The notes beneath the pieces are model-generated. The model was not told where the DNA came from, did not search any database, and saw only the letters and a program-made list of their open reading frames with translations. DNA of 64,000 bases from Rhea pennata (taxonomy: Eukaryota; Chordata; Aves; Rheiformes; Rheidae), in assembly GCF_028389875.1 (NCBI RefSeq), contig NC_084676.1, forward strand, positions 1,426,001 through 1,490,000, in the 5' to 3' direction. Shown in pieces: positions 3,184 to 52,622 of this stretch (position 1 is its first letter; each line of letters begins with the position of its first letter). A program made the position numbers and the translations under genes.

Positions 3184-5631
3184 ATGGGCGTGTGCGTGCG
3201 TGCGGTGCTGCGGGTGCTGGTGCTGCAGGCGGCCTGGGCTCTGGGCGGCGGCCAGCTGCGCTACTCGGTGCCGGAGGAGGCCGAGGGCGGCACGGTGGTG
3301 GGTCGCCTGGCGCAGGACCTGGGCCTGGAGGCGGGCGAGCTGGAGGCGCGTCGGCTGCGGCTGGTGGCGAAGGGCCGGCGGGCGAGCGTGGAGGTGAGCA
3401 GGGCGAGCGGGGCGCTGGTGGTGAGCTCGCGGCTGGACCGGGAGGAGCTGTGCGGGAAGAGCGCGCCGTGCGCCCTGCGCCTGGAGGTGCTGCTGGAGCG
3501 GCCGCTGCGCGTCTTTCACGTGGAGCTGGAGGTCACCGACATCAACGACAACGCGCCGCTCTTCCCCGCCGCCCGCAAAAACCTCAGTGTCGCGGAGTCC
3601 TTAATGCTGCCGGGATCGCGCTTCCCGCTGGAGGGCGCGTCGGACGCAGATATCGGAGCCAACGCGCAGCTCTCCTACAAACTCAGCCCGAGCGAGCATT
3701 TCGCTCTGGATTTACAGAAAATGAATGACGGAAATATGCTACCCGAACTCGTGTTAACGAAGGCTCTGGACCGGGAGGCGATGCCTGTGCACCGGCTGCT
3801 GCTGACGGCGAGTGACGGGGGCAGACCGTCGCTGTCGGGCACCATGGAGCTGGTGGTCTCGGTGCTGGATGTGAACGACAACGCGCCCGAGTTCAACCAG
3901 TCGGTCTATAAAGTGCAGCTGGCAGAGAACGCTGCAGAGGGGACGCTGGTTTTGCGCTTGAGCGCCACGGATCCTGACGAGGGATCGAACCGCGCAGTGA
4001 CCTACACAGCCACCCACTTCCTGCCACTCCTTGGGAAAGATGTCATTAGCGTGAATCCAAACACGGGAGAGATCAGACTGACGGCGCCCCTGGATTTTGA
4101 AGAAGTCAAAGTATTTGACTTCCGCATAGAGGCGAGAGACAAGGGTTCGCCTCCGTTGTCGGGACACTGCAGAGTGGAGCTGGAGGTGCTGGACGTGAAC
4201 GACAACGCGCCGGAGGTGTGGGTGACGTCGCTGTCGGTGCCGGTGCCGGAGGACGCGGCCCTAGGCACGGTGGTGGCGCTGCTGAGCGTGTCGGACCGGG
4301 ACTCGGGGGCGAACGGGCGCGTGCGGTGCGCGGTGTGGCCGGCGGCGCCGTTCGGGCTGGTGGCGACGTTCGAGGGCTCGTACTCGCTGGTGCTGCGGGA
4401 GGCGCTGGACCGCGAGCGGGTGGCGGAGTACGAGGTGGAGGTGCGGGCGGAGGACGGCGGGGCGCCGCCGCTGCGCGCCAGGCGCGGGCTGCGGGTGCCG
4501 GTGTCGGACGTGAACGACAACGCGCCGGCGTTCGCGCAGGCCGTGTACACGGTGCTGGCGCGGGAGAACAACGCGGCGGGCGCGGAGCTGGCGCGGCTGT
4601 GGGCGCGGGATCCGGACGAGGCGGGCAACGGGCGCGTGAGCTACTCGCTGGCGGAGGGCATGGCCGGGGGGGCGTCGCGCTCGGCGTCGAGCTACGTGTC
4701 GGTGGAGGCGGAGAGCGGGCGTCTGTGGGCGCTGCAGCCCTTGGACTACGAGGAGGTGCAGGTGCTGCAGTTCGAGGTGCGCGCGGTGGACGCGGGGGAG
4801 CCGGCGCTGTGCGGCAACGCCACGGTGCAGCTCTTCGTCGTGGACGAGAACGACAACGCGCCGGCGCTGCTGCCGCCGGCGGGCGGCGGCGCGGGGCCCT
4901 GGGCGGGCGGCGCGTCGGGGTCGGCGTCGGCGGGGCCGTCGGCGTCGGCGTCGCTGTGGGCGTGGGCGGCGTGGGGGTCGCCGGCGGGGCAGGTGGTGGC
5001 GAAGATCCGCGCGGTGGACGCGGACTCGGGCTACAACGCGTGGCTGCGCTACGAGCTGCGGGAGCCGCGGGGCAAGGGCGCGTTCCGCGTGGGGCTGTAC
5101 AGCGGCGAGGTGAGCACGGCGCGGGCGCTGGAGGAGGCGGACGGCCCGGGGCAGACGCTGCTCATCGTGGTGCGGGACCACGGCGAGCCGGCGCGCTCGG
5201 CCACGGCCACGCTGAGCGTGTCGCTGGGCGAGGGCGGCGAGGCGGCGCTGGCGGCGGCGGGCTCGTCGTCGCCGGGGCTGCGGCCGGCGGCGGGCGCCGA
5301 GGGCGGCGGCGGCGGTGGGGCGGCGGCGACGAACGTGTGGCTGGTGGTGGCCATCTGCGCGGTGTCGAGCCTCTTCCTGCTGGCGCTGGTGCTGTACGGG
5401 GCGTGGCGGTGGGCGCCGCGGGCGGCCGTGCTCTCGGGGCCCGGGCCGGCGACGCTGGTGTGCGCCAGCGAAGTGGGCAGCTGGTCGTACTCGCAGCGGC
5501 AGAGCCGGAGCCTGTGCGTGGCGGACGGCGCGGGCAAGAGCGACCTCATGGTTTTCAGCCCCAACTTCCCGCCGCCCGCCGGCGGCGCGGCGAAGGAGAC
5601 GCCGCAGGATCTGCCCGCTCTGCTGGACACG
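3184..5631 (+). CDS. PCDHA: Protocadherin alpha variable exon 1 (first in window)
   Basis: This single exon codes for 816 residues of a clustered protocadherin, a neuronal surface protein for homophilic recognition. The ATG at 3184 has a strong Kozak context (GCCATGG). In order: signal peptide about 1-22; EC1 ending DINDNAP (119-125), with the family CX5C loop at Cys90-Cys96; EC2 ending DVNDNAP at 229; EC3 ending DVNDNAP near 337; EC4 ending DVNDNAP at 442; EC5 ending DENDNAP at 554; EC6 with an Ala/Gly/Ser-rich insert (562-598); transmembrane segment about 717-738; and a tail with GSWSYSQ and KSDLMVFSPNFP, diagnostic of the alpha family. The exon ends in phase 0 at ACG|GTCAGT. Without splicing the frame runs 17 more codons to a stop at 5680. 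The EC1 position where many mammalian alphas have RGD reads GRRAS. Which alpha number it corresponds to cannot be told. Confidence 0.94.
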
Positions 5632-5637
5632 GTCAGT
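5632..5637 (+). other. Splice donor of PCDHA variable exon 1
   Basis: The sequence ACG|GTCAGT follows the last shared codon (LLDT). The same donor stands at the same place in all four variable exons. It has C at +3 and C at -2, so it is weaker than the GTAAGT donors of the relic at 42859 and of PCDHAC1. Phase 0 agrees at all six donors seen. The donor choice is inferred from family structure. Confidence 0.75.
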
Positions 5638-8600: not shown

Positions 8601-9049
8601 TTATCGCAGCTCATGAAGTGGGAGCGTGTGGGTATGTTCTGCGGGAAAATGCAGGGGGATAACTGTCACGACTTATGTTAACATCATCACACACCTGTCA
8701 CAGAAGTGAACGGGTGTGAGGCAATGTGTGGGATCTCATTACTGTGCGTACTGAACCTCTGTCTCTGTTGCTCTGCAAGTGCTTGCCTGTCTGGAAAGAT
8801 AGGCAGGAACTGGACATGCATCATGCAGCCGCAATCAGAAAATGAGGAAGAGGAACACGTCTTGCCTGAGGGAGAGAGAGACCACTAAAGAGCTGTGGCT
8901 GTCCTAATTTTTCACCCTTGTCTGAGCATTTGCACGTCAAATGCCAAATATCTCCAAGGATGGCAATTTGACACCCTCTCTGGGCCCCTGCTCAGCTACC
9001 TAGCCACTCTCACCTCAGAGGTTAGTTTCTGTTTACCCAGTCTTTTATC
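5638..9049. repeat. Spacer after exon 1, with an exon-less promoter-like block
   Basis: No gene is supported. The part 5632-8060 is a near copy of 21153-23590 behind exon 2. Positions about 7340-8060 resemble the flank normally found upstream of a variable exon (compare 2230-2560 and 17870-18250), but no exon follows. Instead the sequence enters another spacer start at about 8070-8890, homologous to 1-810. A short flank at 8990-9046 matches 23750-23812. A breakpoint at about 9050 then enters the CR1 element; compared with the second copy, about 720 bp are missing at that join. Confidence 0.75.
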
Positions 9050-11405
9050 CAGTGCTCCATCACTCTCACAGTAAAGAAGTTCATCCCTATATACAGACAG
9101 AGCTTCGTCTGGTTCAGTTTGTGACCGTTCCCTCCTGTCCTGTTGAATGTCACCACTGAGAACAGTTTGGCCCCATCCCCTTGACACCCTCCCTTGAGGT
9201 ATTTGTAGACATTGATAAGACCCCCTCTCAGTCTTCTCTTCTGCAGGCAAAACAGCCCCAGCTCTTGCAGCCTTTCCTCATAGGGAACATGCTCCACTCC
9301 TCTGATCATCTTTGTAGCCCTATGCTGGGCACTCTCTGGGGACTCCATGTCTCTCTTGCTCTGGGGAGCCCAGAACTGGACACAGGACTCGAGATGAGGC
9401 CTCACCAAGGCTGGGTAGAGCAGCAGGATCCCCTCCCTCAACCTGATGGTAACACTCTTCATCGTACACCCCAGGATCCCATTGGCCTTCCTGGCCACAA
9501 GGGCACATTACTGGCTCATAGTCACCCACCAGGCCTCCCAGGTCCTCCTCTGCAGAGCTGTTTTCCAGCAGGTCAGCCCCCAGCCTGTACTGGTGAATAA
9601 CTGAAAGGGTTATTCCTCCCTAGCTGCAAAGCCCTGCACTTGCCCTTGTTGAACTTCCTGAGGGTCTTTTCTGCCTAACTGTCCAGATCTCTCTGAATGG
9701 CAGCACTGCCTTCTGGTGTATCAGCCACTCCTCCCAGCTTGGTATCCTCAGCAAACTTGCTGAGGAGGCGCTCTGTCCCTTTGTCCATGTCATTGACGAA
9801 TAAGTTGAAGAAGACTGGCCCCAGTACTGAGCCCTGGGGAACTCCATTAACTACAGGCCTCCAGCTAGACTGTGTGCCAGTGATGACAACCCTCTCAGCT
9901 CTACCTTTCAGCCAGTTCTCAATCCACTTCGCTGTCCACTCATGTAACCTTCACTTCTTGAGTTTACCTAAGAGGATGTTATGGGAGACAACGTAAAAAG
10001 GCTTGCTGAAGTCGAGGTAGACAACATCAACTGCTCTCCCTTCATCTACACAACCAGTCATTCCGTCGTGGAAGGCTGTCAGATTGGTCAAGTGTGGTTT
10101 GCCCTTGACGAATCCATGCTGATTCCTCCCGATCACCTTCTTTACCTCCGTCTGCTTGGAGATGATGTCCAGAACGAGCTGTTCCATCACCTTTGCAGGG
10201 ATGGAGGTGAGGCTGAGCAGCCGTTTTTTCGTGGGTTCTCCTTCTTGCGCTTTTTGAAGATGGGAGTAACACTGGCTTTCTTCCAGTCCTCGGGCACCTC
10301 TCCAGTTCTCCATGACCCTTCAAGGATGATGGAGAGTGGCCTAGCAACAACATCCACCAGCTCCCTCAGTACTCGTGGGTGCATCCCATCAGGGCCCATG
10401 GATCTGCAGATGTCAAGTTTGCCCAAAAGATCTCTAACCCGATCCTCCTTGAGCAGAGGAAAGTCTTCCTTTCTCCAGACTTTCTCTCTCCTCTCATGGC
10501 TCTGGGATTGGTGAGGGCTACCCTTAGCAGTGAAGACTGAAGCAAAGAAGGCATTGAGTAACTCTGCCTTCTCTGCATCGTTCATCACCAGGGCTCCCAC
10601 CCCATTCAGGAGCAGGCCCACATTTTCCCCAGTCTTCCTCTTGCTACTGATGTGTCTGAGGAAGCCCTTCTTGTTGTCCTTGACATGCCTTGCCAGGCTT
10701 AAATCCAAATGGGCCTTGGCCTTCCTCATTGAATCTCTGCATACTCTGACAACATACTTAGAATCCTCCCAAGTGGCCTGTCCCCTCTTCCACATTCTGT
10801 GTACTTTCCTCTTCCATTGGAGTTTTGGCAGGAGCTCCTTGCTCATCCATGCAGGTCTCCTGCCCCCTTTGCTGGACTTGTTTCTCCTTCGGATGCATGC
10901 TCTTGAGCTTGGAGGAAGTGATGCTTGAATACTCGCCAGCTCTCCCGGACCCCCCTTCCTCCTGGGGCCTTAAGCCATGGGACTTCTCCCGGTAGGCCTC
11001 TGAAGAGGCCAAAGTTGGATCTGCTGAAGTCCAGGGTTGCGATCCTGCTTATTGGCTTGCTTCCTCCATGCAGGATCCTGAATTCCACCATCTCATGGTC
11101 ACTGCAGCCAAGGCTGCCCCCAACCTTCACATCTGCAACCAGTCCTTCTTTGTGGGTTAGGACAACGTCCATCAGGACACCCCTCCTCATGGCTCCTCCA
11201 CCACCTGTGTCAAAAAGTCCTAACTGATGCTCTGCAGGAGCCTGCGGGTCTGGCTGTGCCTAGCTGTGTAGTCCTTCCAGCAGATATCGGGGTGGGTGAA
11301 ATCCCCCATGAGAAGCAGGGCCTGTGATTGTGAGGCTACTTCCAGCTGTCTGTAGAAGGCCTCCTCGACTTCCTCTTCCTGATCAGGTGGCCTGTAGTAG
11401 GCACC
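9050..11405 (-). mobile_element. CR1 LINE, copy 1, 3' portion of ORF2 (reverse transcriptase side)
   Basis: Read on the minus strand this gives CR1 reverse transcriptase and part of the endonuclease in broken frames. Recognisable CR1 phrases include [18 protein letters not shown] text and YYRPPDQEEEVEEAFY. The catalytic FADDT-type box reads FAEDT. The 3' end of the element, present in copy 2, is deleted here. The copy is interrupted at 11405 by the retrovirus and resumes at 16505. It is non-functional because of frameshifts and stops. Confidence 0.9.
11400..11405. repeat. Target-site duplication (left) of the endogenous retrovirus
   Basis: GGCACC directly abuts the left LTR and recurs at 16505-16510 after the right LTR. 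The paralogous CR1 copy has one GGCACC at 26735-26740, which is the empty site. A 6-bp duplication fits alpha- and betaretrovirus-type integrases. Confidence 0.9.
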
Positions 11406-11767
11406 TGTCGGAGGCGGGCTTGTGGAATCATAAGACGACTCAATATGAGCTAGCAATATGATCCGTTTATTTCAGCAACTTAACCTGCTTATATACCATC
11501 GTATGCAGTTCACACGCTCAAGCATCCTGCTGGTTATATCTAATTGGCTTACTACTATAGTTCACGCCGCAAAGCTCTGTGCTATTGGCTATCCACATAT
11601 TCACTGTCCCATCTCACCAGCCCCTTCATCCTGTTTTTACATAGCATTCATTCTTATTCCCTCATTACTTGTCCTTCAAGGTGTCTCCAAGATTACTCCA
11701 TATCAGCAAGTCAGGGTTGCTCATTTGTATGGCCTGATATCCATGCTCGTCCAGCCAATTCTCTGCA
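11406..11767 (-). repeat. 3' LTR of the endogenous retrovirus
   Basis: Read on the minus strand the LTR starts TGCAGAGAATTGG and ends GCCTCCGACA, so it has TG...CA ends. A TATA-like TATATAAG lies at about 11488-11495 and an AATAAA signal at about 11466-11471, consistent with a short R region. It differs from the other LTR at about 12 of 362 positions, mostly transitions, by hand comparison. Confidence 0.92.
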
Positions 11768-11780
11768 ATTCCCCCATTTT
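11768..11780 (-). other. Polypurine tract of the endogenous retrovirus
   Basis: On the minus strand AAAATGGGGGAAT directly precedes the 3' LTR. This is the expected place and composition for the plus-strand DNA primer. Confidence 0.8.
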
Positions 11781-12480
11781 TCTTTTGAGCAACCCAAACT
11801 TGTTTAAGAGCCTTGGGAACATCCGCTTAACACAGCTAAATGTAATACAGAGGAATACACCCAGCAAGCACAGCACAACTGCTATCCACAATAGTTCTTT
11901 GATCAAACTTAACAACCATCGAGGCAAAGGGCCAAACAAACCCTGTAGCCATCTGTCCAAAAGTCCCTGCTCTTGTTGTATTTTCTTCGTATGATCTTGT
12001 AGCCACCGAATCTTCTTGTGGATAGATTCACTGTGATCTGACAGGTTCAAGCAACACATTCCCTCAAAGTCCTCACATCCATGTCCTTGTGCCAATAGGA
12101 AAAAATCAATTGCTGCACAATGGCTTACGTTTAGGGATTGATTACAATTGTGAATGCTAAACGGCTTAAAATACTTGATCCAAAAAGTGGGAACTTCTAC
12201 CAGACACGTCCAAATCTGCTTGTGCCATTGGTATGTGAATTGCATCGGGCTCCTGGCCGGTGATGGCCACCAGCCTATCCTGTCCTTTTCTAATTACTTC
12301 CTCTACTTGCTCCAGGCGCGTAACAATACTACACTTCGGTTGGAGAGGGAGAAATATCCATTGCAAAACCGCTATCACATCTCTCCCTCCCCCCCCTTTT
12401 CTTTTTGCCACTGCATGATGACTGCACACACTTATGGCCAGATAACAGTACGACAAGCCTATATGGCTCGTCTTCAAACC
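11781..12480 (-). pseudogene. Retroviral env remnant, transmembrane subunit only
   Basis: Two minus-strand frames carry the pieces. The upstream piece (about 12166-12440) has a heptad-like stretch (RLEQVEEVIRKGQDRL). The downstream piece (11721-12245) has the CX6CC motif CEDFEGMCC, a further helical stretch, a hydrophobic membrane span (LLWIAVVLCLLGVFLCI) and a short basic tail. The two pieces are in different frames. The surface subunit and the fusion-peptide region are not recognisable. It is a broken relic of a membrane-fusion glycoprotein. The junction with pol sequence lies at about 12400-12480. Confidence 0.8.
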
Positions 12481-13390
12481 GACAAGATGCCCACCGTGAT
12501 GTGACTAAATCCGTTAAGTGCTGTAAACAAGCCTGTTGTGCTGTAGACAAATGGACAGGGGTAGCTGGATCCGAGCCCTTTAATAAGGGGCGAAGAGGCT
12601 CCAGCTCCTCGTTTCGAATGCCTACTATGGCCCTGATCCATTGTAAATCTCCCATAAGTTTCTATGCATCCCGTAGGGTGTGGATGGCAGTTGTCAGTGT
12701 AACCTTTTGTGGTCTGACCATAGTATCACTGATGTGCCATGCCAAATATTTCCATGGGCTGGTAACCTGTATCTTTTCTGGAGCAACCTGTAATCCTCTG
12801 GCCAGTATCGTATCATGCAAATATTTGCTTTGATGGTGTGAAAAGGGAGCAGCCTGGGCTACTAAAATGTCATCCATATAATGATAAATGATTGCTTGTG
12901 GCCATGCTTGACGGATGGGCTGCAAGGCGGCCGCTACGAGTAACTGACACATGGTGGAGCTGTTACGCATCCCTCGAGGGAGCACGACCCATTCAAATCA
13001 CTGACTCGGGGCGGCCTTATTAAGCGCTGGAAGGGAAAAGGCAAATCGAGGTGCATCAACCGGGTGAAGTGGAATTGTGAAAAAAACAATCCTTAAGGTC
13101 TACAATCAGAATGTGCCATTCACGTGGAATCATTGTAGGTGCTGGCAGCCCTGGCTGCAGCGCCCCCATTGGCAGCGTTTGCTTGTTTACCTTTCTTAGG
13201 TCATGTAACAAATGCCACTTCCCTGATTTTTTTTGGAATAACAAATATAGGTGTGTTCCAAGGACTTGTTGAAGGTTGAATATGCCTGACACATAACTGT
13301 TCAGCAACTAATTCATGCGCCCGTTGCAACTGTTCCTGTGTCAGCGGCCACTACTCCACCCACACTGGTTCATTAGTGAGCCAAGTGAGC
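12400..13390 (-). pseudogene. Retroviral pol remnant, reverse transcriptase fingers to thumb
   Basis: The minus strand shows the N-terminal region with [16 protein letters not shown] and LIVDLKDC, then YMDD at about 12869-12880, then a thumb segment beginning MGDLQWIRAIVG. These parts lie in at least two frames, and a stop interrupts the N-terminal part. No RNase H or integrase follows; the sequence passes directly into env. It would have copied the viral RNA genome into DNA and is now inactive. Confidence 0.88.
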
Positions 13391-13448
13391 TTCAGGGGTG
13401 TCGGTTGCTTCACAGCGGCCACTGAGAAAAAAACCGAGTCAGGGGTTG

Positions 13449-14242
13449 CTAAAACAACTCCCCATTGTGTGAGGCACTCCCGTCCCACCAACCCATTGAC
13501 CCCTTCAGGTAGTGGCAGGATAGTAAGGAGTACCCGGGGCTGCGTTGCTCAAGGATCAGCTCCGCAGGCTGCAAAGTTACCATGGCTTGAGCTGATCCCC
13601 CCACACCCGCAACTGCATCTGGAGACGGACGAACTGGCCAGAGTGTGGGCCAAACCGTGGCTGACATGATCGTAACATCAGCTCCTGTGTCCAACAGCAA
13701 GCAGAAGTACCGCTGCTCACCGGCATAATTTACTTGCACCGAGACCATCGGTCTACGGTTCATGTTTAGAGTTAGACAAGCCAGCGGGTCGGTACTTCCA
13801 AACCCAGCATTCCCCCACTGGGGCAACTCTCGAAGCTGAGCAGGATTGGTCAATTCTGCTAATAACTGTGGAAATGGGATGATCTGGGCAATTTTACTTC
13901 CCCTTGGTATAAAAATGGGAGGAGTTAGAGTATATGCTACTATCCAAACTTCACCTGTATAATCAGCATCAAGAACCCCAGGGCATACAATGATGCCCTT
14001 CAAGCCGGCCGAGGAGTGGCCTAACAAAAGGCCCCCACTCGATCAGGTGGCTTGTGCCACCCTGTTGGAATTTTTTGTGGCCTGGTGTCAATCAGGGTGA
14101 TTTCTACTGCTGTTGCCAGGTCGAACCCCAAGCTCCCGGCAGTGGCTGGAGTCCCCCAACCACCGGAGCCAGAGGAGGGGTTATTGTTGTCTGCATGCAA
14201 CCCCCTTTCGCGCTCCACAAGCCGTTTCCCGACCGCCAACAT
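13449..14242 (-). pseudogene. Retroviral dUTPase-protease remnant
   Basis: The dUTPase part shows a first motif in SLGFDLATAVEITL (frame ending near 14021) and later motifs in HSSAGLKGIIVCPGV and FIPRGSKIAQIIP (next frame, 13449-14027), so a frameshift lies near 14025. The aspartic protease follows with DTGAD at about 13677-13691. Its beginning overlaps the end of gag in another frame, as expected for a class II element that makes Gag-Pro by ribosomal frameshifting. The dUTPase-before-protease order is the best class marker in this element. Confidence 0.85.
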
Positions 14243-16120
14243 GCAGCAGAGGCGTGAGTGTCTCTTTGACAGTTCTCACACCACACTTGTGCCTCCCTGC
14301 ATTATTTCCAGGTGTGGCCCGGTTTCCCACAGCGGAAGCAAGCCCCTAAGTTACGAGGTCTCTTCTGCTGGGTCGGGCCCTGTAAGGCAGCGGCAAGCGC
14401 CTGTGTCTGCTGTGCCACTGCTTCTGCAAGCGATTTGCTTTGCTGTTTAACAGCAGCGGCAACCGCCTCAGACACAAACGCAGCTTGCTGCTGGAGGCCA
14501 GAATTAGCTGCTCTCTCCAGCATCTGAGAGAGCGTGGCACTCCTAGGCAAGGTGCTTAGCAACATTTTCATTTTCGCATTTGCATTCTCAAACGCAAAAG
14601 CACGCAACAACTATTCCTTGACCCCCTCCCCGATCTCGTGAGACGCCTCAATAGACACCACAAGCTTATTGACAAAGGAGTCAAAGGGCTCCTGGACTCC
14701 TTGACACAACGTAGCCCAACTGGGTGGCTTCTTTTCCATCGGCACTCTCCACAGCGCGTTTTTAGCTGCTTCAGCAGAGGCGTTGTGGAAATCCACCGGA
14801 AACTGCAGTTGTTGAGCAGCGGCAGCATAAATTCCTTTGCCCATCAGCATATCCAAGGTGACATCTCGCAGGGGATCAGTTTATGGCCTCGGCACGTTGA
14901 CCACCTTGCGACAGCCCTCCTCCCAATATCGTTCCCACAGGAGAAACTGCGCCGGGGTCAACACCAGTTTTGCCACTGAAACACAGTCATCCGGTGTCAT
15001 GACATTTGATGCAAACAAATACGTAATCATTTGTCATGACGGCTCTCCGTGTAATCCATAGGTAGCAACTGTATTGCGAATTTGCTGCATCAACTTCCAC
15101 TCGAAAGGGTGATATCTAGCAGTGGCTTGGCCACCTGCATTCGTACCAGTCACAGGGAAGGCAGAGGGAGGAGAGGCAGCGGCGGCCTGCCACTCACCCT
15201 CCAAAAGGGCATCGCAGATCACCCCTGACCACCGATGTTGTGTATTCAAGGGCTTTAATTGCACTCCGCCAGAAGAGATAACAAGCACATCACCCACTTC
15301 TCCAGCTTGCAAATTGCTCATGTGCCGAGTAACTTCCTCCAACAGATGGTCTGAAGGCCGAGGCCCTGAGCGGCGTGACCGCAGCGAAGGAGGGGGGTCA
15401 AGGAAGCGGCCCTCCTCCTCAGGTTCCGCATGCGCACTCCTTGCCCCAGCTGTTTTCCCTTTGTTATCACTATTCTCGTTCTCTGGCAGAGGCGGTGCAG
15501 AGGGACGGCAACAAGGGCCCCCTTGGCCTTCGTCCAAACGAGAAGTCTGCCCCTCCTGCTCTGCCTGGCTCTGAGCCGCTTTTGCCCTTATCTCTGCTGC
15601 GCTCTCAGCCACAGGAACCTCCATTCCTCCTGCGGAGGACTGGCTCGCAAAAAGCCGTGAGGGAGTAACTGCGGGAGAGGTTTCCGAGGGGCGATCCCCC
15701 AGCATTGCCGATGCGGCACATGCGACCCTTTTTTCTGACTGATATTTCTACAGGGCATTAATCACTTCCCGCCAGGTTGCACTCAATTCCTTCGTGATTT
15801 TGCTACCATCCAGAGTCTTGTCCCATAGGGTACTGCCAACCTCCTGCCATTCGTCGACACTAAATACCAAGGTGGGTGTCACTTAAATGTCCATGCCCCC
15901 TCGCCCACTCACAGAGGGCAAGTAACTTCTTAGTAGAGACGGGCGCCTCTTGCTTAGCGAGGAATTCCATCAATAACTGTATTGCTGCTTCTCGTTCCAT
16001 CTCTATGGCAAGGATCAGCGGTCTTACTGGCATTCGGAGGGCAGCTGCACGAATTCCTCTTTAGTGCGCACAGGGCCTTTCCTCCAGCTTTCATAGAAAG
16101 CAGGTTCACTTATGTCTTCG
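14104..16120 (-). pseudogene. Retroviral gag remnant
   Basis: From about 15705 down to 14104 the Gag text keeps one minus-strand frame but is cut by at least three in-frame stops, near 15034, 14611 and 14287. Recognisable parts are a Pro/Ser-rich middle region, the capsid start (AFPVTGTNAGG), the major homology region (QGVQEPFDSFVNKL) and nucleocapsid with two zinc knuckles, CFRCGKPGH and CENCQRDTHASAAC. The last stop falls inside the first knuckle, before its final cysteine. The matrix part above 15705 is not resolved. Confidence 0.82.
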
Positions 16121-16122
16121 GG

Positions 16123-16140
16123 GTCCCTGTTCGGGTGCCA
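16123..16140 (-). other. Primer binding site, tRNA-Lys type
   Basis: On the minus strand TGGCACCCGAACAGGGAC lies two bases after the 5' LTR. It matches the familiar lysine primer site (TGGCGCCCGAACAGGGAC) at 17 of 18 positions, so the element is of the K-primer type. Confidence 0.88.
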
Positions 16141-16142
16141 CT

Positions 16143-18689: not shown

Positions 18690-21152
18690 ATGGGCGTGTG
18701 CGTGCGTGCTGTGCTGCGGGTGCTGGTGCTGCAGGCGGCCTGGGCTCTGGGCGGCGGCCAGCTGCGCTACTCGGTGCCGGAGGAGGCCGAGGGCGGCACG
18801 GTGGTGGGTCGCCTGGCGCAGGACCTGGGCCTGGAGGCGGGCGAGCTGGAGGCGCGTCGGCTGCGGCTGGTGGCGAAGGGCCGGCGGGCGAGCGTGGAGG
18901 TGAGCGGGGCGAGCGGGGCGCTGGTGGTGAGCTCGCGGCTGGACCGGGAGGAGCTGTGCGGGAAGAGCGCGCCGTGCGCCCTGCGCCTGGAGGTGCTGCT
19001 GGAGCGGCCGCTGCGCGTCTTTCACGTGGAGCTGGAGGTCACCGACATCAACGACAACGCGCCGCTCTTCCCCGCCGCCCGCAAAAACCTCAGCGTATCG
19101 GAGAATTCCCCTCCCGGCTCGCGCTTCCCGCTGGAGGGCGCGTCGGACGCAGATATCGGAGCCAACGCGCAGCTCTCCTACAAACTCAGCCCGAGCGAGC
19201 ATTTCGCTCTAGAAGTGAAATCCGCGGATGAAAACAGGAAATCGTTATTTCTGGTGCTGTCGAAGGCTCTGGACCGGGAGGCGATGCCTGTGCACCGGCT
19301 GCTGCTGACGGCGAGTGACGGGGGCAGACCGTCGCTGTCGGGCACCATGGAGCTGGTGGTCTCGGTGCTGGATGTGAACGACAACGCGCCCGAGTTCAAC
19401 CAGTCGGTCTATAAAGTGCAGCTGTCAGAGAACGCTGCAGAGGGGACGCTGGTTTTGCGCGTGAGTGCCACGGATCCGGACGAGGGAATGAACAGCGAAG
19501 TGACATATACAGTCACTAACGTAATCCCTGGTAGAGGAAAAAACCTGTTCTTGCTAGATCCAAGCACAGGGCAGATGAGGCTCGCGGGTCCCCTGGATTT
19601 TGAGGACGTTCGTCTATACGAGATACAAGTGGAAGCGAAAGACAAGGGTTCGCCTCCATTGTCTGGACACTGCAGTGTGGAGCTGGAGGTGCTGGACGTG
19701 AACGACAACGCGCCGGAGGTGTGGGTGACGTCGCTGTCGGTGCCGGTGCCGGAGGACGCGGCGCTGGGCACGGTGGTGGCGCTGCTGAGCGTGTCGGACC
19801 GGGACTCGGGGGCGAACGGGCGCGTGCGGTGCGCGGTGTGGCCGGCGGCGCCGTTCGGGCTGGTGGCGACGTTCGAGGGCTCGTACTCGCTGGTGCTGCG
19901 GGAGGCGCTGGACCGCGAGCGGGTGGCGGAGTACGAGGTGGAGGTGCGGGCGGAGGACGGCGGGGCGCCGCCGCTGCGCGCCAGGCGCGGGCTGCGGGTG
20001 CCGGTGTCGGACGTGAACGACAACGCGCCGGCATTCGCGCAGGCCGTGTACACGGTGCTGGCGCGGGAGAACAACGCGGCGGGCGCGGAGCTGGCGCGGC
20101 TGTGGGCGCGGGATCCGGACGAGGCGGGCAACGGGCGCGTGAGCTACTCGCTGGCGGAGGGCGTGGCGGGGGGGGCGTCGCGCTCGGCGTCGAGCTACGT
20201 GTCGGTGGAGGCAGAGAGCGGGCGTCTGTGGGCGCTGCAGCCCTTGGACTACGAGGAGGTGCAGGTGCTGCAGTTCGAGGTGCGCGCGGTGGACGCGGGG
20301 GAGCCGGCGCTGTGCGGCAACGCCACGGTGCAGCTCTTCGTCGTGGACGAGAACGACAACGCGCCGGCGCTGCTGCCGCCGGCGGGCGGCGGCGCGGGGC
20401 CCTGGGCGGGCGGCGCGTCGGGGTCGGCGTCGGCGGGGCCGTCGGCGTCGGCGTCGCTGTGGGCGTGGGCGGCGTGGGGGTGGCCGGCGGGGCAGGTGGT
20501 GGCGAAGATCCGCGCGGTGGACGCGGACTCGGGCTACAACGCGTGGCTGCGCTACGAGCTGCGGGAGCCGCGGGGCAAGGGCGCGTTCCGCGTGGGGCTG
20601 TACAGCGGCGAGGTGAGCACGGCGCGGGCGCTGGAGGAGGCGGACGGCCCGGGGCAGACGCTGCTCATCGTGGTGCGGGACCACGGCGAGCCGGCGCGCT
20701 CGGCCACGGCCACGCTGAGCGTGTCGCTGGGCGAGGGCGGCGAGGCGGCGCTGGCGGCGGCGGCGGCGGGCGCGGGCTCATCGTCGTCGGGGCTGCGGCC
20801 GGCGGCGGGCGCCGAGGGCGGCGGCGGCGGCGGCGCGGCGGCGACGGCGACGAACGTGTGGCTGGTGGTGGCCATCTGCGCGGTGTCGAGCCTCTTTCTG
20901 CTGGCGCTGGTGCTGTACGGGGCGTGGCGGTGTGCGCCGCGGGCGGCCGTGCTCTCGGGGCCCGGGCCGGCGACACTGGTGTGCGCCAGCGAAGTGGGCA
21001 GCTGGTCGTACTCGCAGCGGCAGAGCCGGAGCCTGTGCGTGGCGGACGGCGCGGGCAAGAGCGACCTCATGGTTTTCAGCCCCAACTTCCCGCCGCCCGC
21101 CGGCGGCGCGGCGAAGGAGACGCCGCAGGATCCGCCCGCTCTGCTGGACACG
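18690..21152 (+). CDS. PCDHA: Protocadherin alpha variable exon 2
   Basis: The exon codes for 821 residues with the same plan as exon 1: signal peptide, six EC repeats, transmembrane segment and alpha-type tail ending LLDT before ACG|GTCAGT. The start at 18690 has the GCCATGG context. It is nearly identical to the other three exons in EC1 and EC4 to the tail. It differs at the EC2 start (SVSENSPPGSRF, one residue shorter), in the EC2 patch FALEVKSADENRKSLF, and across EC3, where it carries LDPSTGQMRLAGPLDFED. EC6 has slightly longer Ala runs. After the membrane span it reads GAWRCAP, so a juxtamembrane cysteine replaces the Trp of exons 1 and 4. Without splicing the frame stops soon after, at about 21201. 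Confidence 0.94.
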
Positions 21153-32126: not shown

Positions 32127-34589
32127 ATGGGCGTGTGCGTGCGTGCGGTGCTGCGGGTGCTGGTGCTGCAGGCGGCCTGGGCGCTGGGAGGCGGCCAGCT
32201 GCGCTACTCGGTGCCGGAGGAGGCCGAGGGCGGCACGGTGGTGGGTCGCCTGGCGCAGGACCTGGGCCTGGAGGCGGGCGAGCTGGAGGCGCGTCGGCTG
32301 CGGCTGGCGGCGAAGGGCCGGCGGGCGAGCGTGGAGGTGAGCGGGGCGAGCGGGGCGCTGGTGGTGAGCTCGCGGCTGGACCGGGAGGAGCTGTGCGGGA
32401 AGAGCGCGCCGTGCGCCCTGCGCCTGGAGGTGCTGCTGGAGCGGCCGCTGCGCGTCTTTCACGTGGAGCTGGAGGTCACCGACATCAACGACAACGCGCC
32501 GCTCTTCCCCGCCGCCCGCAAAAACCTCAGTGTCGCGGAGTCCTTAACGTTGCCGGGCTCGCGCTTCCCGCTGGAGGGCGCGTCGGACGCAGATATCGGA
32601 GCCAACGCGCAGCTCTCCTACAAACTCAGCCCGAGCGAGCATTTCGCTCTGGAGAGGCAGAAAACCGAAGAGGACGGTGAATCGTTATTTCTGGTGCTGT
32701 CGAAGGCTCTGGACCGGGAGGCGATGCCTGTGCACCGGCTGCTGCTGACGGCGAGTGACGGGGGCAGACCGTCGCTGTCGGGCACCATGGAGCTGGTGGT
32801 CTCGGTGCTGGATGTGAACGACAACGCACCCGAGTTCAACCAGTCGGTCTATAAAGTGCAGCTGGTGGAAAACAGGGAAGCGGGAACGTTAGTGATGAGA
32901 GTGGAAGCCACGGATCGCGATGAGGGAACGAACAGCGATATTTCATATGTCCTCCGAAGTATTTTTCCTGTGGACAGGAGGGACGTGTTCAGAGTCGACA
33001 GGAACAGTGGGGAGATCAGTCTTAGAGAACAGCTGGATTTTGAAGACGTTCCCCTCTATCGTCTGCAAGTGGATGCAGAGGACAGGGGAAACCCCCCGCT
33101 GTCCGGTCACTGCAAAGTAGTGGTGGAGGTGCTGGACGTGAACGACAACGCGCCGGAGGTGTGGGTGACGTCGCTGTCGGTGCCGGTGCCGGAGGACGCG
33201 GCGCTGGGCACGGTGGTTGCGCTGTTGAGCGTGTCGGACCGGGACTCGGGGGCGAACGGGCGCGTGCGGTGCGCGGTGTGGCCGGCGGCGCCGTTCGGGC
33301 TGGTGGCGACGTTCGAGGGCTCGTACTCGCTGGTGCTGCGGGAGGCGCTGGACCGTGAGCGGGTGGCGGAGTACGAGGTGGAGGTGCGGGCGGAGGACGG
33401 CGGGGCGCCGCCGCTGCGGGCGAGGCGCGGGCTGCGGGTGCCGGTGTCGGACGTGAACGACAACGCGCCGGCGTTCGCGCAGGCCGTGTACACGGTGCTG
33501 GCGCGGGAGAACAACGCGGCGGGCGCGGAGCTGGCGCGGCTGTGGGCGCGGGACCCGGACGAGGCGGGCAACGGGCGCGTGAGCTACTCGCTGGCGGAGG
33601 GCGTGGCGGGGGGGGCGTCGCGCTCGGCGTCGAGCTACGTGTCGGTGGAGGCGGAGAGCGGGCGTCTGTGGGCGCTGCAGCCCTTGGACTACGAGGAGGT
33701 GCAGGTGCTGCAGTTCGAGGTGCGCGCGGTGGACGCGGGGGAGCCGGCGCTGTGCGGCAACGCCACGGTGCAGCTCTTCGTCGTGGACGAGAACGACAAC
33801 GCGCCGGCGCTGCTGCCGCCGGCGGGCGGCGGCGCGGGGCCCTGGGCGGGCGGCGCGTCGGGGTCGGCGTCGGCGGGGCCGTCGGCGTCGGCGTCGCTGT
33901 GGGCGTGGGCGGCGTGGGGGTGGCCGGCGGGGCAGGTGGTGGCGAAGATCCGCGCGGTGGACGCGGACTCGGGCTACAACGCGTGGCTGCGCTACGAGCT
34001 GCGGGAGCCGCGGGGCAAGGGCGCGTTCCGCGTGGGGCTGTACAGCGGCGAGGTGAGCACGGCGCGGGCGCTGGAGGAGGCGGACGGCCCGGGGCAGACG
34101 CTGCTCATCGTGGTGCGGGACCACGGCGAGCCGGCGCGCTCGGCCACGGCCACGCTGAGCGTGTCGCTGGGCGAGGGCGGCGAGGCGGCGCTGGCGGCGG
34201 CGGCGGCGGGCGCGGGCTCGTCGTCGTCGGGGCTGCGGCCGGCGGCGGGCGCCGAGGGCGGCGGCGGCGGCGCGGCGGCGACGGCGACGAACGTGTGGCT
34301 GGTGGTGGCCATCTGCGCGGTGTCGAGCCTCTTCCTGCTGGCGCTGGTGCTGTACGGGGCGTGGCGGTGTGCGCCGCGGGCGGCCGTGCTCTCGGGGCCC
34401 GGGCCGGCGACGCTGGTGTGCGCCAGCGAAGTGGGCAGCTGGTCGTACTCGCAGCGGCAGAGCCGGAGCCTGTGCGTGGCGGACGGCGCGGGCAAGAGCG
34501 ACCTCATGGTTTTCAGCCCCAACTTCCCGCCGCCCGCCGGCGGCGCGGCGAAGGAGACGCCGCAGGATCCGCCCGCTCTGCTGGACACG
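32127..34589 (+). CDS. PCDHA: Protocadherin alpha variable exon 3
   Basis: The exon codes for 821 residues with signal peptide, EC1-EC6, transmembrane segment and alpha tail (GSWSYSQ, KSDLMVFSPNFP), ending LLDT|GTCAGT. The ATG at 32127 has the GCCATGG context. EC1 and EC4 to the tail match the other exons almost perfectly. The EC2 patch reads FALERQKTEEDGESLF. EC3 is the most distinct of the four (QLVENREAGTLVMRVEATD, VFRVDRNSGEISLREQLDFE). The juxtamembrane text is GAWRCAP. If unspliced, the frame continues about 110 codons through a poly-T tract, encoding a Phe run, to a stop near 34917. Confidence 0.94.
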
Positions 34590-36170
34590 GTCAGTGGCAC
34601 TTTCTTTTCTGCTGCTTCTCACCTCTGCGTCTCCCGGAAGCTCCTTCTTATTTCTTGGCTCTGCCTTTCGGCAGCGCCTCTCGGAGCCGCGGTCGGCCCC
34701 CGGCGCCTGCGGGGGGCCAGTACTTGGCAGCTCTTTGGTCTGCGCCTCTTGGCACTGCGATGCCCGCTGTGTCTCCCTTCGCTTGCAAACGCTCTCGGCG
34801 TTCAGAGCCGGTGCGCGCTTGTAGAAGGAGTCCGCACTCTGGAGCGTGGGGCTTGGTGGGATTTTTTTTTTTTTTTTTTTTTTTTACAAAATTTCTATAC
34901 CGTGAAGTGTTTCGCATGACGGTTTCCCTTTCTGTTCTTGACTAAGATGTTATTGGAAAGCAGGCGTAGGCTCCTACGGCCTGTAGAATCTCCTAGGGAT
35001 TTTTTTGTTTTGTTTTTGTTTGCTTTTGCTTTTGCTTTTCTTGGTGGAAGACCTATAAGTGAACCGAGATCTGGAGCATGATCTGGGATGAAAAGGGCGT
35101 TTGGAAGCCTCCGGTGCTATCCCCGTGCTTAAAGTGGATCTAACTTTGAAGTTGGATGAGGTTGCTGAGGATGTTGTCCATTCTAGTTCTGCATATCATG
35201 TCTCACTGTCATTCTCCATCTACCCCTGCTTGTGAAGAGCTCTGCCGTGTGCCCTCCTCAGTCATTTCTTTTTGAATATGAGGAATTATTCCTCAAAGAG
35301 AAGTTCCCCCCTTTAGTGTTTTGATCAGTTTGATGGCCATCTCTGAAAGCACTATTCTTGCTCTTCTCTTTATCGTATTTAGAAGATGATGAACTGCACG
35401 CACAATTCAAACTCTCGTTGAACCTTGAATTTGCCTCATGTGGAATGAAACTCTTTGTTTTCTTCTCTCCGTTCTCAGAAAGCTTACTCTTTTGATGTTC
35501 TCTGAGGACTGAGGTGACATACCTATGTTGCTGTCTTTCCTATGCAAAAGATGTAATTTCAGAGTGGTATAGGCTTAGCTCAGAGCTCGTGTTAAATTCT
35601 GTAGATGACAGATTCTTTTCCTCATTCACTCGTTTTTACACTGTCTTTCATGGAAAATCATGTACCATTTTCCCACTCAGTACTTCAGTGTTGTAAATCT
35701 TTTTTTTTTTTGCAGTTTTTCACAGAAGACCCCCCTTATAACGCTACTCAGTGAGGTAATATCTGCTGAAATCTTCCTCACGTTGCTCTCCATGCCTTTT
35801 CTAGATCTTTTCCTGGAGACATTATATGACAGAAGCCCGAGAAAAAAAGTCTCAACCAAACTCCAGTGATGACTTTCTGATTTTGCTCAAGTGACCAGCC
35901 TCGGTCTTTCTGCCACCTGTGTTGTTATATTATACTTCCTAGTGCCTCTTTTAGCCTCCTTTCATTTTGTGTGGAGTGCCTTCATTTGTATACATTCTCC
36001 TGTTTTGCAAGTAGGCCAGTTCTAATGGATATTTTATTTTTGGCTGATGATGCTCCCACAGAATGCCTATTTCCGGTCTTCTTGCTTACTGAGAGCATCA
36101 TACTCCTCCTCTTGTTTCATTCCCTCTTTCATTCATGCAATGTGCCCTCTGTTGTTACTTTATGCTTTTA
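34590..36170. repeat. Spacer behind exon 3, duplicated behind exon 4
   Basis: This 1.58 kb block recurs at 41180-42762 with only about four or five substitutions seen by eye and a poly-T length change (24 versus 26 T). The first 270 bp also resemble the start of the spacers behind exons 1 and 2, up to GGCTTGGTGGGAT. There the poly-T tract (34862-34885) begins and the homology ends. A strong acceptor-like TTTTTTTTTTTGCAG lies at 35701-35715. Confidence 0.85.
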
Positions 36171-38716: not shown

Positions 38717-41179
38717 ATGGGCGTGTGCGTGCGTGCGGTGCTGCGGGTGCTGGTGCTGCAGGCGGCCTGGGCGCTGGGAGGCGGCCAGCTGCGCTACTCG
38801 GTGCCGGAGGAGGCCGAGGGCGGCACGGTGGTGGGTCGCCTGGCGCAGGACCTGGGCCTGGAGGCGGGCGAGCTGGAGGCGCGTCGGCTGCGGCTGGCGG
38901 CGAAGGGCCGGCGGGCGAGCGTGGAGGTGAGCGGGGCGAGCGGGGCGCTGGTGGTGAGCTCGCGGCTGGACCGGGAGGAGCTGTGCGGGAAGAGCGCGCC
39001 GTGCGCCCTGCGCCTGGAGGTGCTGCTGGAGCGGCCGCTGCGCGTCTTTCACGTGGAGCTGGAGGTCACCGACATCAACGACAACGCGCCGCTCTTCCCC
39101 GCCGCCCGCAAAAACCTCAGTGTCGCGGAGTCCTTAACGTTGCCGGGCTCGCGCTTCCCGCTGGAGGGCGCGTCGGACGCAGATATCGGAGCCAACGCGC
39201 AGCTCTCCTACAAACTCAGCCCGAGCGAGCATTTCGCTCTGGAGCTGCAAAAGAACGAGAAGTACAGTGAATCGTTATTTCTGGTGCTGTCGAAGGCTCT
39301 GGACCGGGAGGCGATGCCTGTGCACCGGCTGCTGCTGACGGCGAGTGACGGGGGCAGACCGTCGCTGTCGGGCACCATGGAGCTGGTGGTCTTGGTGCTG
39401 GATGTGAACGACAACGCACCCGAGTTCAACCAGTCGGTCTATAGTGCGCATTTATCAGAAGATGCCTCAGAGGGGACACTGGTGTTGTGCGTGAGCGCCA
39501 CGGATCCGGATGAGGGAATTAACCATGAAATGGCGTACACAGTCAAAAACGTAAATCCTGAAAGTGGAATGGACCTGTTCGCATTAGATCCGAGCACAGG
39601 GCAGATGAGGCTCGCGGGTCCCCTGGATTTTGAGGACATTCGTCTGTACGAGATACAAGTGGAAGCGAAAGACCGGGGTTCGCCTCCGTTGTCGGGACAC
39701 TGCAAGGCGGTGGTGGAGGTGCTGGACGTGAACGACAACGCGCCGGAGGTGTGGGTGACGTCGCTGTCGGTGCCGGTGCCGGAGGACGCGGCGCTGGGCA
39801 CGGTGGTGGCGCTGCTGAGCGTGTCGGACCGGGACTCGGGGGCGAACGGGCGCGTGCGGTGCGCGGTGTGGCCGGCGGCGCCGTTCGGGCTGGTGGCGAC
39901 GTTCGAGGGCTCGTACTCGCTGGTGCTGCGGGAGGCGCTGGACCGTGAGCGGGTGGCGGAGTACGAGGTGGAGGTGCGGGCGGAGGACGGCGGGGCGCCG
40001 CCGCTGCGGGCGAGGCGCGGGCTGCGGGTGCCGGTGTCGGACGTGAACGACAACGCGCCGGCGTTCGCGCAGGCCGTGTACACGGTGCTGGCGCGGGAGA
40101 ACAACGCGGCGGGCGCGGAGCTGGCGCGGCTGTGGGCGCGGGACCCGGACGAGGCGGGCAACGGGCGCGTGAGCTACTCGCTGGCGGAGGGCGTGGCGGG
40201 GGGGGCGTCGCGCTCGGCGTCGAGCTACGTGTCGGTGGAGGCGGAGAGCGGGCGTCTGTGGGCGCTGCAGCCCTTGGACTACGAGGAGGTGCAGGTGCTG
40301 CAGTTCGAGGTGCGCGCGGTGGACGCGGGGGAGCCGGCGCTGTGCGGCAACGCCACGGTGCAGCTCTTCGTCGTGGACGAGAACGACAACGCGCCGGCGC
40401 TGCTGCCGCCGGCGGGCGGCGGCGCGGGGCCCTGGGCGGGCGGCGCGTCGGGGTCGGCGTCGGCGGGGCCGTCGGCGTCGGCGTCGCTGTGGGCGTGGGC
40501 GGCGTGGGGGTGGCCGGCGGGGCAGGTGGTGGCGAAGATCCGCGCGGTGGACGCGGACTCGGGCTACAACGCGTGGCTGCGCTACGAGCTGCGGGAGCCG
40601 CGGGGCAAGGGCGCGTTCCGCGTGGGGCTGTACAGCGGCGAGGTGAGCACGGCGCGGGCGCTGGAGGAGGCGGACGGCCCGGGGCAGACGCTGCTCATCG
40701 TGGTGCGGGACCACGGCGAGCCGGCGCGCTCGGCCACGGCCACGCTGAGCGTGTCGCTGGGCGAGGGCGGCGAGGCGGCGCTGGCGGCGGCGGCGGCGGG
40801 CGCGGGCTCGTCGTCGTCGGGGCTGCGGCCGGCGGCGGGCGCCGAGGGCGGCGGCGGCGGCGCGGCGGCGACGGCGACGAACGTGTGGCTGGTGGTGGCC
40901 ATCTGCGCGGTGTCGAGCCTCTTCCTGCTGGCGCTGGTGCTGTACGGGGCGTGGCGGTGGGCGCCGCGGGCGGCCGTGCTCTCGGGGCCCGGGCCGGCGA
41001 CGCTGGTGTGCGCCAGCGAAGTGGGCAGCTGGTCGTACTCGCAGCGGCAGAGCCGGAGCCTGTGCGTGGCGGACGGCGCGGGCAAGAGCGACCTCATGGT
41101 TTTCAGCCCCAACTTCCCGCCGCCCGCCGGCGGCGCGGCGAAGGAGACGCCGCAGGATCCGCCCGCTCTGCTGGACACG
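38717..41179 (+). CDS. PCDHA: Protocadherin alpha variable exon 4 (mosaic)
   Basis: The exon codes for 821 residues from ATG 38717 (GCCATGG context), with signal peptide, six EC repeats, transmembrane segment and alpha tail, ending LLDT|GTCAGT. An in-frame ATG at 38630 would add 29 mostly basic residues before the signal peptide; the inner start is preferred because it is shared with the other exons and begins the signal peptide. EC1, the EC2 start and EC4-EC6 match exon 3. The EC2 patch is FALELQKNEKYSESLF. EC3 carries LDPSTGQMRLAGPLDFED, as in exon 2, while its end (KAVVEV) follows exon 3. The juxtamembrane text is GAWRWAP, as in exon 1. The coding sequence is intact. Confidence 0.93.
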
Positions 41180-41446: not shown

Positions 41447-41482
<36 letters not shown>

Positions 41483-52616: not shown

Positions 52617-52622
52617 GTAAGT
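52617..52622 (+). other. Splice donor of the PCDHAC1 exon
   Basis: GTG|GTAAGT follows the codon for the last valine (AVLV) in phase 0, as in the alternate exons. Without splicing the frame would go on for 49 codons to a stop near 52764. Confidence 0.8.

What the first reader, a model, noticed from the sequence alone, without database searches (positions are those of the whole stretch)
3184..41179. Isoform diversity confined to a small EC2 patch and EC3; the rest homogenised
By direct comparison of the four variable exons, EC1, EC4, EC5, EC6, membrane span and tail are nearly identical. The differences gather at the EC2 start, in a roughly 15-residue EC2 patch before LVL.KALDRE, and across EC3 (about residues 239-335). 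In clustered protocadherins the trans interface pairs EC1 with EC4 and EC2 with EC3. If so, recognition identity in this cluster may rest almost wholly on the EC2:EC3 contact, with EC1:EC4 made common.
Basis: partly seen in the sequence, partly recalled or inferred. Interest (0 to 1): 0.75.

Follow-up and report, generated by a model that had tools for sequence, protein, structure and literature searches.

The report
Bird protocadherin-alpha exons, protected variable islands
In this bird, a row of neuronal cell-recognition genes is almost identical copy by copy except for a few short stretches, and the two main ones match parts known in mammals to help tell isoforms apart and are shared with other birds as old, inherited types.

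Summary
The window lies in the Pcdh-alpha cluster of a rhea (Rhea pennata) and holds four of nine near-identical variable exons. Across the nine, EC4 is 100% identical in protein and EC1 99.1%. Of 94 variable residues in EC1-EC4, 90 fall in three islands: EC2 start (112-120), EC2 beta4-beta5 hairpin (151-171) and EC3 (219-309). Synonymous divergence is 0.003 in EC1 and 0.03 in EC4 against 0.88 in the hairpin patch and 0.78 in EC3, so the DNA itself is homogenised. The 17 bird species with three or more usable isoforms all show it. EC1+EC4+EC5 trees group isoforms by species; hairpin+EC3 trees group them into old classes shared between species. Hairpin and EC3 tend to be inherited together; the EC2 start is unlinked. 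Best reading: gene conversion keeps rewriting a common EC1:EC4 frame while selection keeps matched EC2/EC3 specificity cassettes. EC2:EC3 specificity is already argued in print for mammalian alpha isoforms, and the role of EC1:EC4 is disputed there; birds offer a natural test. No binding was tested here, and one EC1 difference (residue 38) lies at a known specificity position.

The parts
3184..5631 (+). Variable exon A (exon 7 of the nine): signal peptide, EC1-EC6, TM and short tail; donor after ...ALLDT
   Evidence: the spliced form is seen in the database protein of sister exon D (P0007)
18690..21152 (+). Variable exon B (exon 8)
32127..34589 (+). Variable exon C (exon 9); its EC2-EC3 class has relatives in many birds
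38717..41179 (+). Variable exon D (exon 10)
   Evidence: 100% identical over 821 aa to Rhea pennata P0007
3253..3555 (+). EC1 of exon A, homogenised (330 of 333 nt of codons 1-111 invariant in nine exons)
3592..3609 (+). EC2-start island of exon A (codons 114-118 plus a one-residue insertion); unlinked to the other islands
3610..3708 (+). EC2 middle of exon A; codons 121-150 identical in DNA in all nine exons
3709..3759 (+). EC2 hairpin patch of exon A (mature residues 152-168)
3760..3909 (+). EC2 end / spacer of exon A (codons 169-218); codons 172-200 identical in DNA in all nine exons
3910..4182 (+). EC3 island of exon A (residues 219-309)
4210..4524 (+). EC4 of exon A, no amino-acid difference among nine exons
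19098..19112 (+). EC2-start island, exon B
19212..19262 (+). EC2 hairpin patch, exon B
19413..19685 (+). EC3 island, exon B
32535..32552 (+). EC2-start island, exon C
32652..32702 (+). EC2 hairpin patch, exon C
32853..33125 (+). EC3 island, exon C
39125..39142 (+). EC2-start island, exon D
39242..39292 (+). EC2 hairpin patch, exon D
39443..39715 (+). EC3 island, exon D
50187..52766 (+). Divergent C-type-like variable exon E (open frame from ATG; exon end not fixed), outside the homogenised set; the C-type name rests on position and recall

Best explanation
This is the avian Pcdh-alpha cluster under concerted evolution with protected islands. Shown: within a species the EC1, EC2-frame, EC4-EC6 and tail sequences of the sampled isoforms are nearly identical, while an EC2 beta4-beta5 hairpin patch and EC3 belong to a few old classes shared with other birds. 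Inferred: repeated gene conversion between neighbouring exons, probably GC-biased, overwrites the frame, so the isoforms of a species share nearly one EC1:EC4 contact (a common, affinity-giving contact). Conversion that would merge hairpin or EC3 types is removed by selection because these two patches face each other across the antiparallel trans dimer and set homophilic identity. Each hairpin/EC3 pair is kept as a matched cassette. The EC2-start island shuffles independently; whether it adds to specificity is open.
For: dS over nine exons: EC1 0.003, EC4 0.031, EC5 0.019, EC6 0.017 against EC2 patch 0.88 and EC3 0.78; GC3 0.97-1.00 in EC1 and EC4-EC6 against 0.52 and 0.65. Blocks of 90 and 87 nt between islands are invariant in nine exons. 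Homology of exon D to A and B runs only from about 85 bp before the start codon to about 0.2 kb after the exon, and exon 2 aligns to exon 3 only from +36, so recent duplication alone does not explain the likeness (12 of 36 pairs compared). In the 17 informative species groups EC1 and EC4 are 0.99-1.00 and EC3 0.61-0.77. The tree of EC1+EC4+EC5 needs 14 species-label changes, the minimum for 15 labels (50 shuffles: 41-49); the hairpin+EC3 tree needs 38 (shuffles 42-50). One Rhea clade on cassette data is rejected, p-AU 2.8e-42, and one Dromaius clade, p-AU 1.6e-4. Patch~EC3 linkage r=0.77 (0 of 300 permutations as high), thinned to one isoform per EC3 class r=0.32 (1 of 300); EC2 start~EC3 r=-0.05 and -0.01. 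Published: the alpha EC2 beta4-beta5 loop and EC3 hold high-ICR residues, EC1/EC4 low (PMC5001838).
Against: No binding, expression or population data. dN does not exceed dS in the islands (EC2 patch dN 0.73 / dS 0.88; EC3 0.26 / 0.78), so retention is inferred and fresh diversifying selection is not seen. Residue 38, a known specificity position, still varies in EC1, and in Calonectris EC1 79 and EC4 373 vary, positions that papers name in or near the interface. The linkage falls from 0.77 to 0.32 when near-duplicates are thinned out, and unthinned the EC2 middle and spacer also correlate weakly with EC3 (r 0.15 and 0.17, 0 of 300; thinned -0.01 and -0.04). The cassette tree keeps some species signal (38 changes, below all 50 shuffles). 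Goodman et al. 2016 hold that EC1:EC4 also sets specificity, including alpha7/alpha8 (PMC5106212); in beta6/beta8 the five interface residues mutated include EC1 41, EC2 117 and 125, EC4 369 and 371 (PMC8901172, passages), which speaks for EC1:EC4 and for an EC2-start role. The homologue set is the top 120 of a list ranked by likeness to exon B and clustered at 90%, so divergent bird alpha isoforms could be missed, and some entries may be transcripts of one exon (e.g. P0022/P0023 are identical in the cassette); only in Rhea was the whole alpha stretch read.
Confidence: 0.68

Rival explanations
1. The islands carry no recognition code. Homogenisation simply cannot enter them because the copies there are too unlike for conversion, so EC2/EC3 types drift and isoforms may bind promiscuously.
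For: dN/dS is below 1 in the islands, and no binding data exist here.
Against: Homogenised blocks of 90 and 87 nt survive between islands, so heterology alone does not stop conversion nearby. Hairpin and EC3 stay matched across the spacer while the EC2 start does not. The hairpin and EC3 match published high-ICR regions.
Confidence: 0.2
2. The nine exons are recent tandem duplicates; the divergent EC2/EC3 pieces were imported later from a few donors, with no long-running concerted evolution.
For: Several units share kilobases of flank at 94-98% (exons 6/7, 5/6, 3/5), and exon 2 shares its 3' flank with exon 3, so some duplication is recent.
Against: Exon 10 (compared with 7, 8 and 9) and exon 2 (compared with 3) share almost no upstream flank. 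EC3 classes have counterparts in emu, kiwi, ostrich, tinamou and neognaths, and the other birds sampled with several isoforms have their own homogeneous frames, so the cassettes are old and the frame seems to be rewritten in each lineage.
Confidence: 0.08
3. Protein-level purifying selection alone keeps EC1 and EC4 alike.
For: EC1 and EC4 are also conserved between genera (0.96 and 0.94).
Against: In Rhea synonymous sites are as uniform as amino acids (dS 0.003 and 0.031), and within-species identity exceeds between-genus identity.
Confidence: 0.02
4. An assembly or polishing artefact merged near-identical copies.
For: The locus is highly repetitive; PMC10463633 notes that the human locus is too duplicative for good short-read mapping (passage).
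Against: The same pattern appears in other species' records, species-specific frames form clean clades, and the homogenised 90-nt blocks lie inside otherwise distinct exons. The four Rhea database proteins probably come from this same assembly, so they are no independent check.
Confidence: 0.02

Closest known systems
Mammalian Pcdh-alpha cluster (mouse alpha isoforms)
   Same: EC2/EC3 are the most diverse domains (PMC4978886 Table 1); EC2 beta4-beta5 loop and EC3 rich in isoform-specific residues (PMC5001838). The tandem variable-exon plus constant-exon layout is recalled.
   Different: Mouse alpha mean identity EC1 95.85, EC2 69.29, EC3 58.52, EC4 85.49; here EC1 99.1, EC2 88.0, EC3 64.1, EC4 100. 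EC2 variation is confined to two short islands.
Regional gene conversion in fugu Pcdh clusters (zebrafish cited there as similar)
   Same: Paralogues more than 99% alike in converted regions, raised GC3, lineage-specific conversion (PMC1852091, passages)
   Different: In fugu the shared part is the 3' side from EC4 or EC5 on; here EC1 and the EC2 frame are homogenised as well, leaving islands inside EC2.
Anole Pcdh-alpha paralogues
   Same: Alpha subcluster and the same dS-per-domain test (PMC2764143, passages)
   Different: Anole alpha dS is 0.151 in EC1 and 0.513 in EC3, highest/lowest ratio 3.40, read there as little conversion; here 0.003 and 0.78 (mean pairwise Nei-Gojobori, so perhaps not the same estimator).
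Chicken Pcdh-alpha cluster (Sugino et al. 2004)
   Same: Bird alpha cluster
   Different: Only its citation was seen. It may already describe part of this pattern in chicken.

Membership tests
Clustered protocadherin, alpha subfamily | One large exon with signal peptide, cadherin repeats, TM and short tail | tested here: met
   One open frame with cadherin domains by Pfam; six ECs by DxND landmarks; signal peptide and TM judged by eye
Clustered protocadherin, alpha subfamily | Variable exons in tandem, same strand, ahead of shared alpha constant exons | tested here: met
   Twelve same-strand variable-type exons in 264 kb by a motif screen; the C-terminal tail of P0007 (annotated Rhea alpha) maps in pieces downstream at about C14 1519767, 1522092, 1556294 and 1556835 (converted from offsets)
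Clustered protocadherin, alpha subfamily | Closest solved relatives are alpha Pcdhs | tested here: met
   5dzv Pcdha7 best by sequence, E 4.3e-184; 5dzw alpha4 and 5dzv alpha7 rank first by fold, although the model's domain arrangement is poor
Clustered protocadherin, alpha subfamily | Strict homophilic trans binding through antiparallel EC1-EC4 | not testable with these tools
   needs proteins and binding assays
Regional gene conversion (concerted evolution) | Synonymous divergence much lower in the homogenised regions | tested here: met
   (Rhea only; other birds were protein only)
Regional gene conversion (concerted evolution) | Raised GC3 in the homogenised regions | tested here: met
   (Rhea only)
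Regional gene conversion (concerted evolution) | Paralogues cluster by species in homogenised regions, by class elsewhere | tested here: met
EC2:EC3-only specificity (EC1:EC4 fully common) | No isoform difference at EC1:EC4 interface residues | tested here: inconclusive
   EC4 0 of 105 variable and EC1 residue 36 invariant, but residue 38 is V/A; the full contact list could not be computed without coordinates

The most novel reading that the evidence does not exclude
In birds, Pcdh-alpha identity is carried entirely by a co-inherited EC2-hairpin/EC3 cassette on a species-wide common EC1:EC4 scaffold that conversion keeps nearly identical. The matched cassettes have lasted since before the palaeognath-neognath split, and different paralogue groups of the same locus put their diversity on different interface patches: alpha on the EC2 hairpin plus EC3, one gamma group mostly on the EC2 hairpin, another partly on EC1:EC4.
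Probability: 0.45. Interest if true: 0.72.

Novelty: new variant of a known kind. Interest (0 to 1): 0.52.

Why it matters
Two groups disagree in print on whether EC1:EC4 helps set Pcdh specificity (PMC5001838 against PMC5106212). A natural repertoire in which EC4 is identical in all nine isoforms and EC1 nearly so lets this be tested without engineered chimeras: if bird alpha isoforms are strictly homophilic, EC2:EC3 is enough. It also shows at nucleotide scale how conversion and selection can divide one exon into a common frame and protected recognition islands.

Tried and rejected
Exonic CTCF sites as the reason for the invariant DNA blocks in EC2: scanned with a recalled core consensus, up to two mismatches; no match inside any of nine exons, one upstream match in six of nine, no more than shuffles give (mean 1.68 per region). 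Not supported, but the scan is crude.

AlphaFold model of EC1-EC4 of exon B: mean pLDDT 71.9, the other four models 42.5 or less, pTM 0.43, and rmsd about 35 A to alpha7. Used only for local secondary structure (strands 149-157 and 160-167, i.e. the hairpin), not for interface geometry.

Isochore effects on GC3 were not tested apart from GC-biased conversion. Recent duplication alone, purifying selection alone and assembly error were weighed as rivals. Corvus moneduloides was left out of the counts (its three entries are identical in all domains). Of the 120 proteins listed, 109 were aligned: 11 were left out (four Rhea entries, replaced by the genome's own exons; one turtle; six fused, partial or low-coverage bird entries). 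Of the 120 listed (108 of them new), eight were added, chosen by me as class-C relatives. The trees used 61 of 126 rows. In the gamma control, 22 of 26 fetched exons were placed in groups; four singletons were left out and two (L049, L052) were added to a group by me.
Full report
WHAT THE WINDOW IS. The window is G000:C14:1426001-1490000 of a 1.27-Gb genome. Database proteins of Rhea pennata match exons 3, 4, 5 and 10 at 100% over 819-824 residues, so the bird is Rhea pennata or extremely close to it. Reading 100 kb on each side gives twelve same-strand variable-type exons in 264 kb by a motif screen. Nine are near-identical alpha exons (numbered 2-10 here; window A-D = 7-10). One divergent exon lies 5' (C14 1345353) and two C-type-like exons lie 3' (window 50187 and C14 1509983); the C-type name is by position and recall. 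The C-terminal tail of a Rhea alpha protein maps in pieces downstream. Exon D reads ...ALLDT before the constant region in that protein, and GT follows at that place in the DNA of all four window exons. Sequence and fold both put exon B nearest to mouse Pcdh-alpha7 and alpha4.

THE OBSERVATION. For nine exons, mean amino-acid identity is EC1 0.991, EC2 0.880, EC3 0.641, EC4 1.000, EC5 0.989, EC6 0.985 and TM+tail 0.986; the four window exons give the same picture. Of 94 variable positions in EC1-EC4, 90 lie in codons 112-120, 151-171 and 219-309; the others are 38, 50, 201 and 202. Synonymous sites follow: dS 0.003 in EC1, 0.031 in EC4, 0.88 in the EC2 patch, 0.78 in EC3. GC3 is 0.97-1.00 in EC1 and EC4-EC6, 0.52 in the EC2 patch and 0.65 in EC3. 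Between the islands, 90 of 90 and 87 of 87 nucleotides are invariant in all nine, and EC1 codons 1-111 are invariant at 330 of 333 nucleotides.

WHY IT IS NOT JUST RECENT DUPLICATION. Twelve of 36 exon pairs were compared with 6 kb on each side (local alignments of at least 100 bp in register). Some pairs do share long flanks (94-98% for 6/7, 5/6 and 3/5). But exon 10 aligns to exons 7 and 8 only from about -85 to +2690 (the exon ends near +2463), and exon 2 aligns to exon 3 only from +36, although its 3' flank is shared. So duplication is part of the history, yet the coding frame is also alike where flanks are not.

OTHER BIRDS. From 120 listed homologues of exon B, 109 were aligned to the nine. 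Eighteen species groups, Rhea included, had three or more isoforms; one (Corvus moneduloides) is a set of entries identical in every domain. In the other 17, within-species EC1 and EC4 identities are 0.99-1.00 and EC3 0.61-0.77; between genera EC1 is 0.96, EC4 0.94 and EC3 0.65. In a later count that includes Athene and leaves Corvus moneduloides out, 10 of 18 species have no EC1 or EC4 difference at all among sampled isoforms, and eight have one to four positions; in Calonectris these include EC1 79 and EC4 373, named in print in or near the interface. Rhea exon 9 has EC3 0.87 identical to an emu isoform but 0.53-0.61 to its own paralogues. Trees of 61 isoforms: EC1+EC4+EC5 separates every species label (14 changes, the minimum); hairpin+EC3 needs 38 changes, still below 50 label shuffles (42-50), so some species signal remains. 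It forms classes with SH-aLRT support 98-100 in the quick tree that mix palaeognaths and, for three of the four Rhea classes, neognaths. The AU test rejects one Rhea clade (p 2.8e-42) and one emu clade (p 1.6e-4) on cassette data. I read this as concerted evolution of the frame with trans-species survival of the cassettes. The age of the split is recalled, not computed.

LINKAGE OF THE ISLANDS. Within species (18 species, 79 isoforms), distance at the hairpin predicts distance at EC3 (r 0.77; 0 of 300 permutations). After thinning to one isoform per EC3 class (12 species, 48 isoforms) r is 0.32 (1 of 300). The EC2 start shows none (-0.05; thinned -0.01), though it is nearer to the hairpin than EC3 is. 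The EC2 middle and the spacer correlate weakly with EC3 unthinned (0.15 and 0.17; 0 of 300 each) and not when thinned (-0.01 and -0.04). In Rhea, exons 3 and 5 have identical hairpin and EC3 but different EC2 starts; 4, 6 and 7 likewise share a class with three different starts. So exchange does happen at this scale, yet hairpin and EC3 stay matched. In the published trans dimer EC2 meets EC3, and for alpha isoforms the EC2 beta4-beta5 loop is singled out as rich in isoform-specific residues (PMC5001838, section 5 read in full). The patch here is that hairpin by local secondary structure of a weak model.

EC1:EC4. Residues 36 (EC1), 322 and 324 (EC4), part of the published alpha7/alpha8 switch (PMC5106212, passages; section 10 read), are invariant in nine Rhea exons and 117 other bird rows. 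Residue 38 is V in six and A in three Rhea exons, and V in 115 of 117 other rows. So the EC1:EC4 contact is very nearly, not perfectly, common. Nicoludis et al. 2016 argue that EC1/EC4 gives affinity without specificity; Goodman et al. 2016 contradict this. In beta6/beta8 the five interface residues that were exchanged include EC1 41, EC2 117 and 125, and EC4 369 and 371 (PMC8901172, passages), a warning against writing off EC1:EC4 or the EC2 start.

CONTROL IN THE SAME GENOME. Of 26 gamma-side exons fetched, 22 fall into groups of five, eight and nine that behave differently. One group differs mostly in the EC2 hairpin (EC1 0.992, EC2 0.935, EC3 0.990, EC4 0.994). One differs at the EC2 start and across EC3, plus an EC1 patch at 68-76. 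In the third, a block at EC1 37-43 with an insertion changes together with EC4 339, 341 and 343: the three exons with the four-residue insertion carry N, H, A where the others carry K, R, R, apart from the outlier L049 (N, R, R). This is about the region of the published gamma-B E41-K338/R340 contact (position match by local alignment). Common EC1:EC4 is thus a property of the alpha set and not of every group at this locus.

WHAT IS KNOWN AND WHAT IS NEW. Regional conversion, GC3 rise and exemption of EC2/EC3 are known (PMC1852091, PMC4978886, PMC3966226, passages). Specificity by EC2/EC3 is known (PMC5001838; PMC7811963, passage). Seven paper searches on Pcdh with conversion, birds or chicken, one on EC2/EC3 interface residues and one on chicken CNR showed no paper on this bird pattern by title or abstract in the listings. 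Noonan 2004 and Wu 2005 are not held and the chicken alpha paper of 2004 was seen only as a citation, so priority cannot be excluded.

STATUS. Shown: the islands, the synonymous contrast in Rhea, the recurrence in sampled isoforms of other birds, species-wise frames with class-wise cassettes, hairpin-EC3 linkage. Inferred: gene conversion as the agent, selection as the guard, EC2:EC3 as the carrier of identity. Not tested: binding, expression, populations.

Noticed in passing
C14 1382999 and 1407652 (exons 3 and 5; loci L014, L017): Two alpha exons encode identical EC2 patch and EC3 (EC3 dS 0) but different EC2 starts and EC1 residue 50; they may be one recognition identity under two promoters.
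   Followed up: partly
L033-L037, L039, L050 (gamma side, within C14 1698900-1766400): In one gamma group an EC1 block at 37-43 with a four-residue insertion changes together with EC4 339/341/343, as if both sides of the EC1:EC4 contact were swapped together.
   Followed up: partly
L029, L031, L043, L045, L047 (gamma side): Five gamma exons differ mostly in the EC2 hairpin (153-164), with two residues at the EC3 start and a few others.
   Followed up: partly
L029-L032, L043-L048 (C14 1614600-1683800): A two-exon unit recurs five times at 14-16 kb spacing (by the fetched places); the proteins of L030 and L032 are identical over EC1-EC5.
   Followed up: no
L021, about C14 1511966: The second C-type-like exon's frame stops inside EC6 and similar coding continues in another frame; a real break or an assembly slip, not resolved.
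   Followed up: no
window 9022-10969 and 24911-26363, minus strand: ORFs in the spacers look like fragments of CR1-type reverse transcriptase (by recall from the translations).
   Followed up: no
window 11721-15747, minus strand: Broken ORFs in the A-B spacer look retrovirus-like (by recall from the translations); described only.
   Followed up: no
C14 1345353-1348146 (L010/L011): A divergent variable-type exon at the 5' end of the cluster escapes the homogenisation.
   Followed up: no
window 34590-34919 and 41180-41497: Exons C and D share a sequence after the splice donor that differs from that of exons A and B; the 3' flank falls into two types.
   Followed up: no
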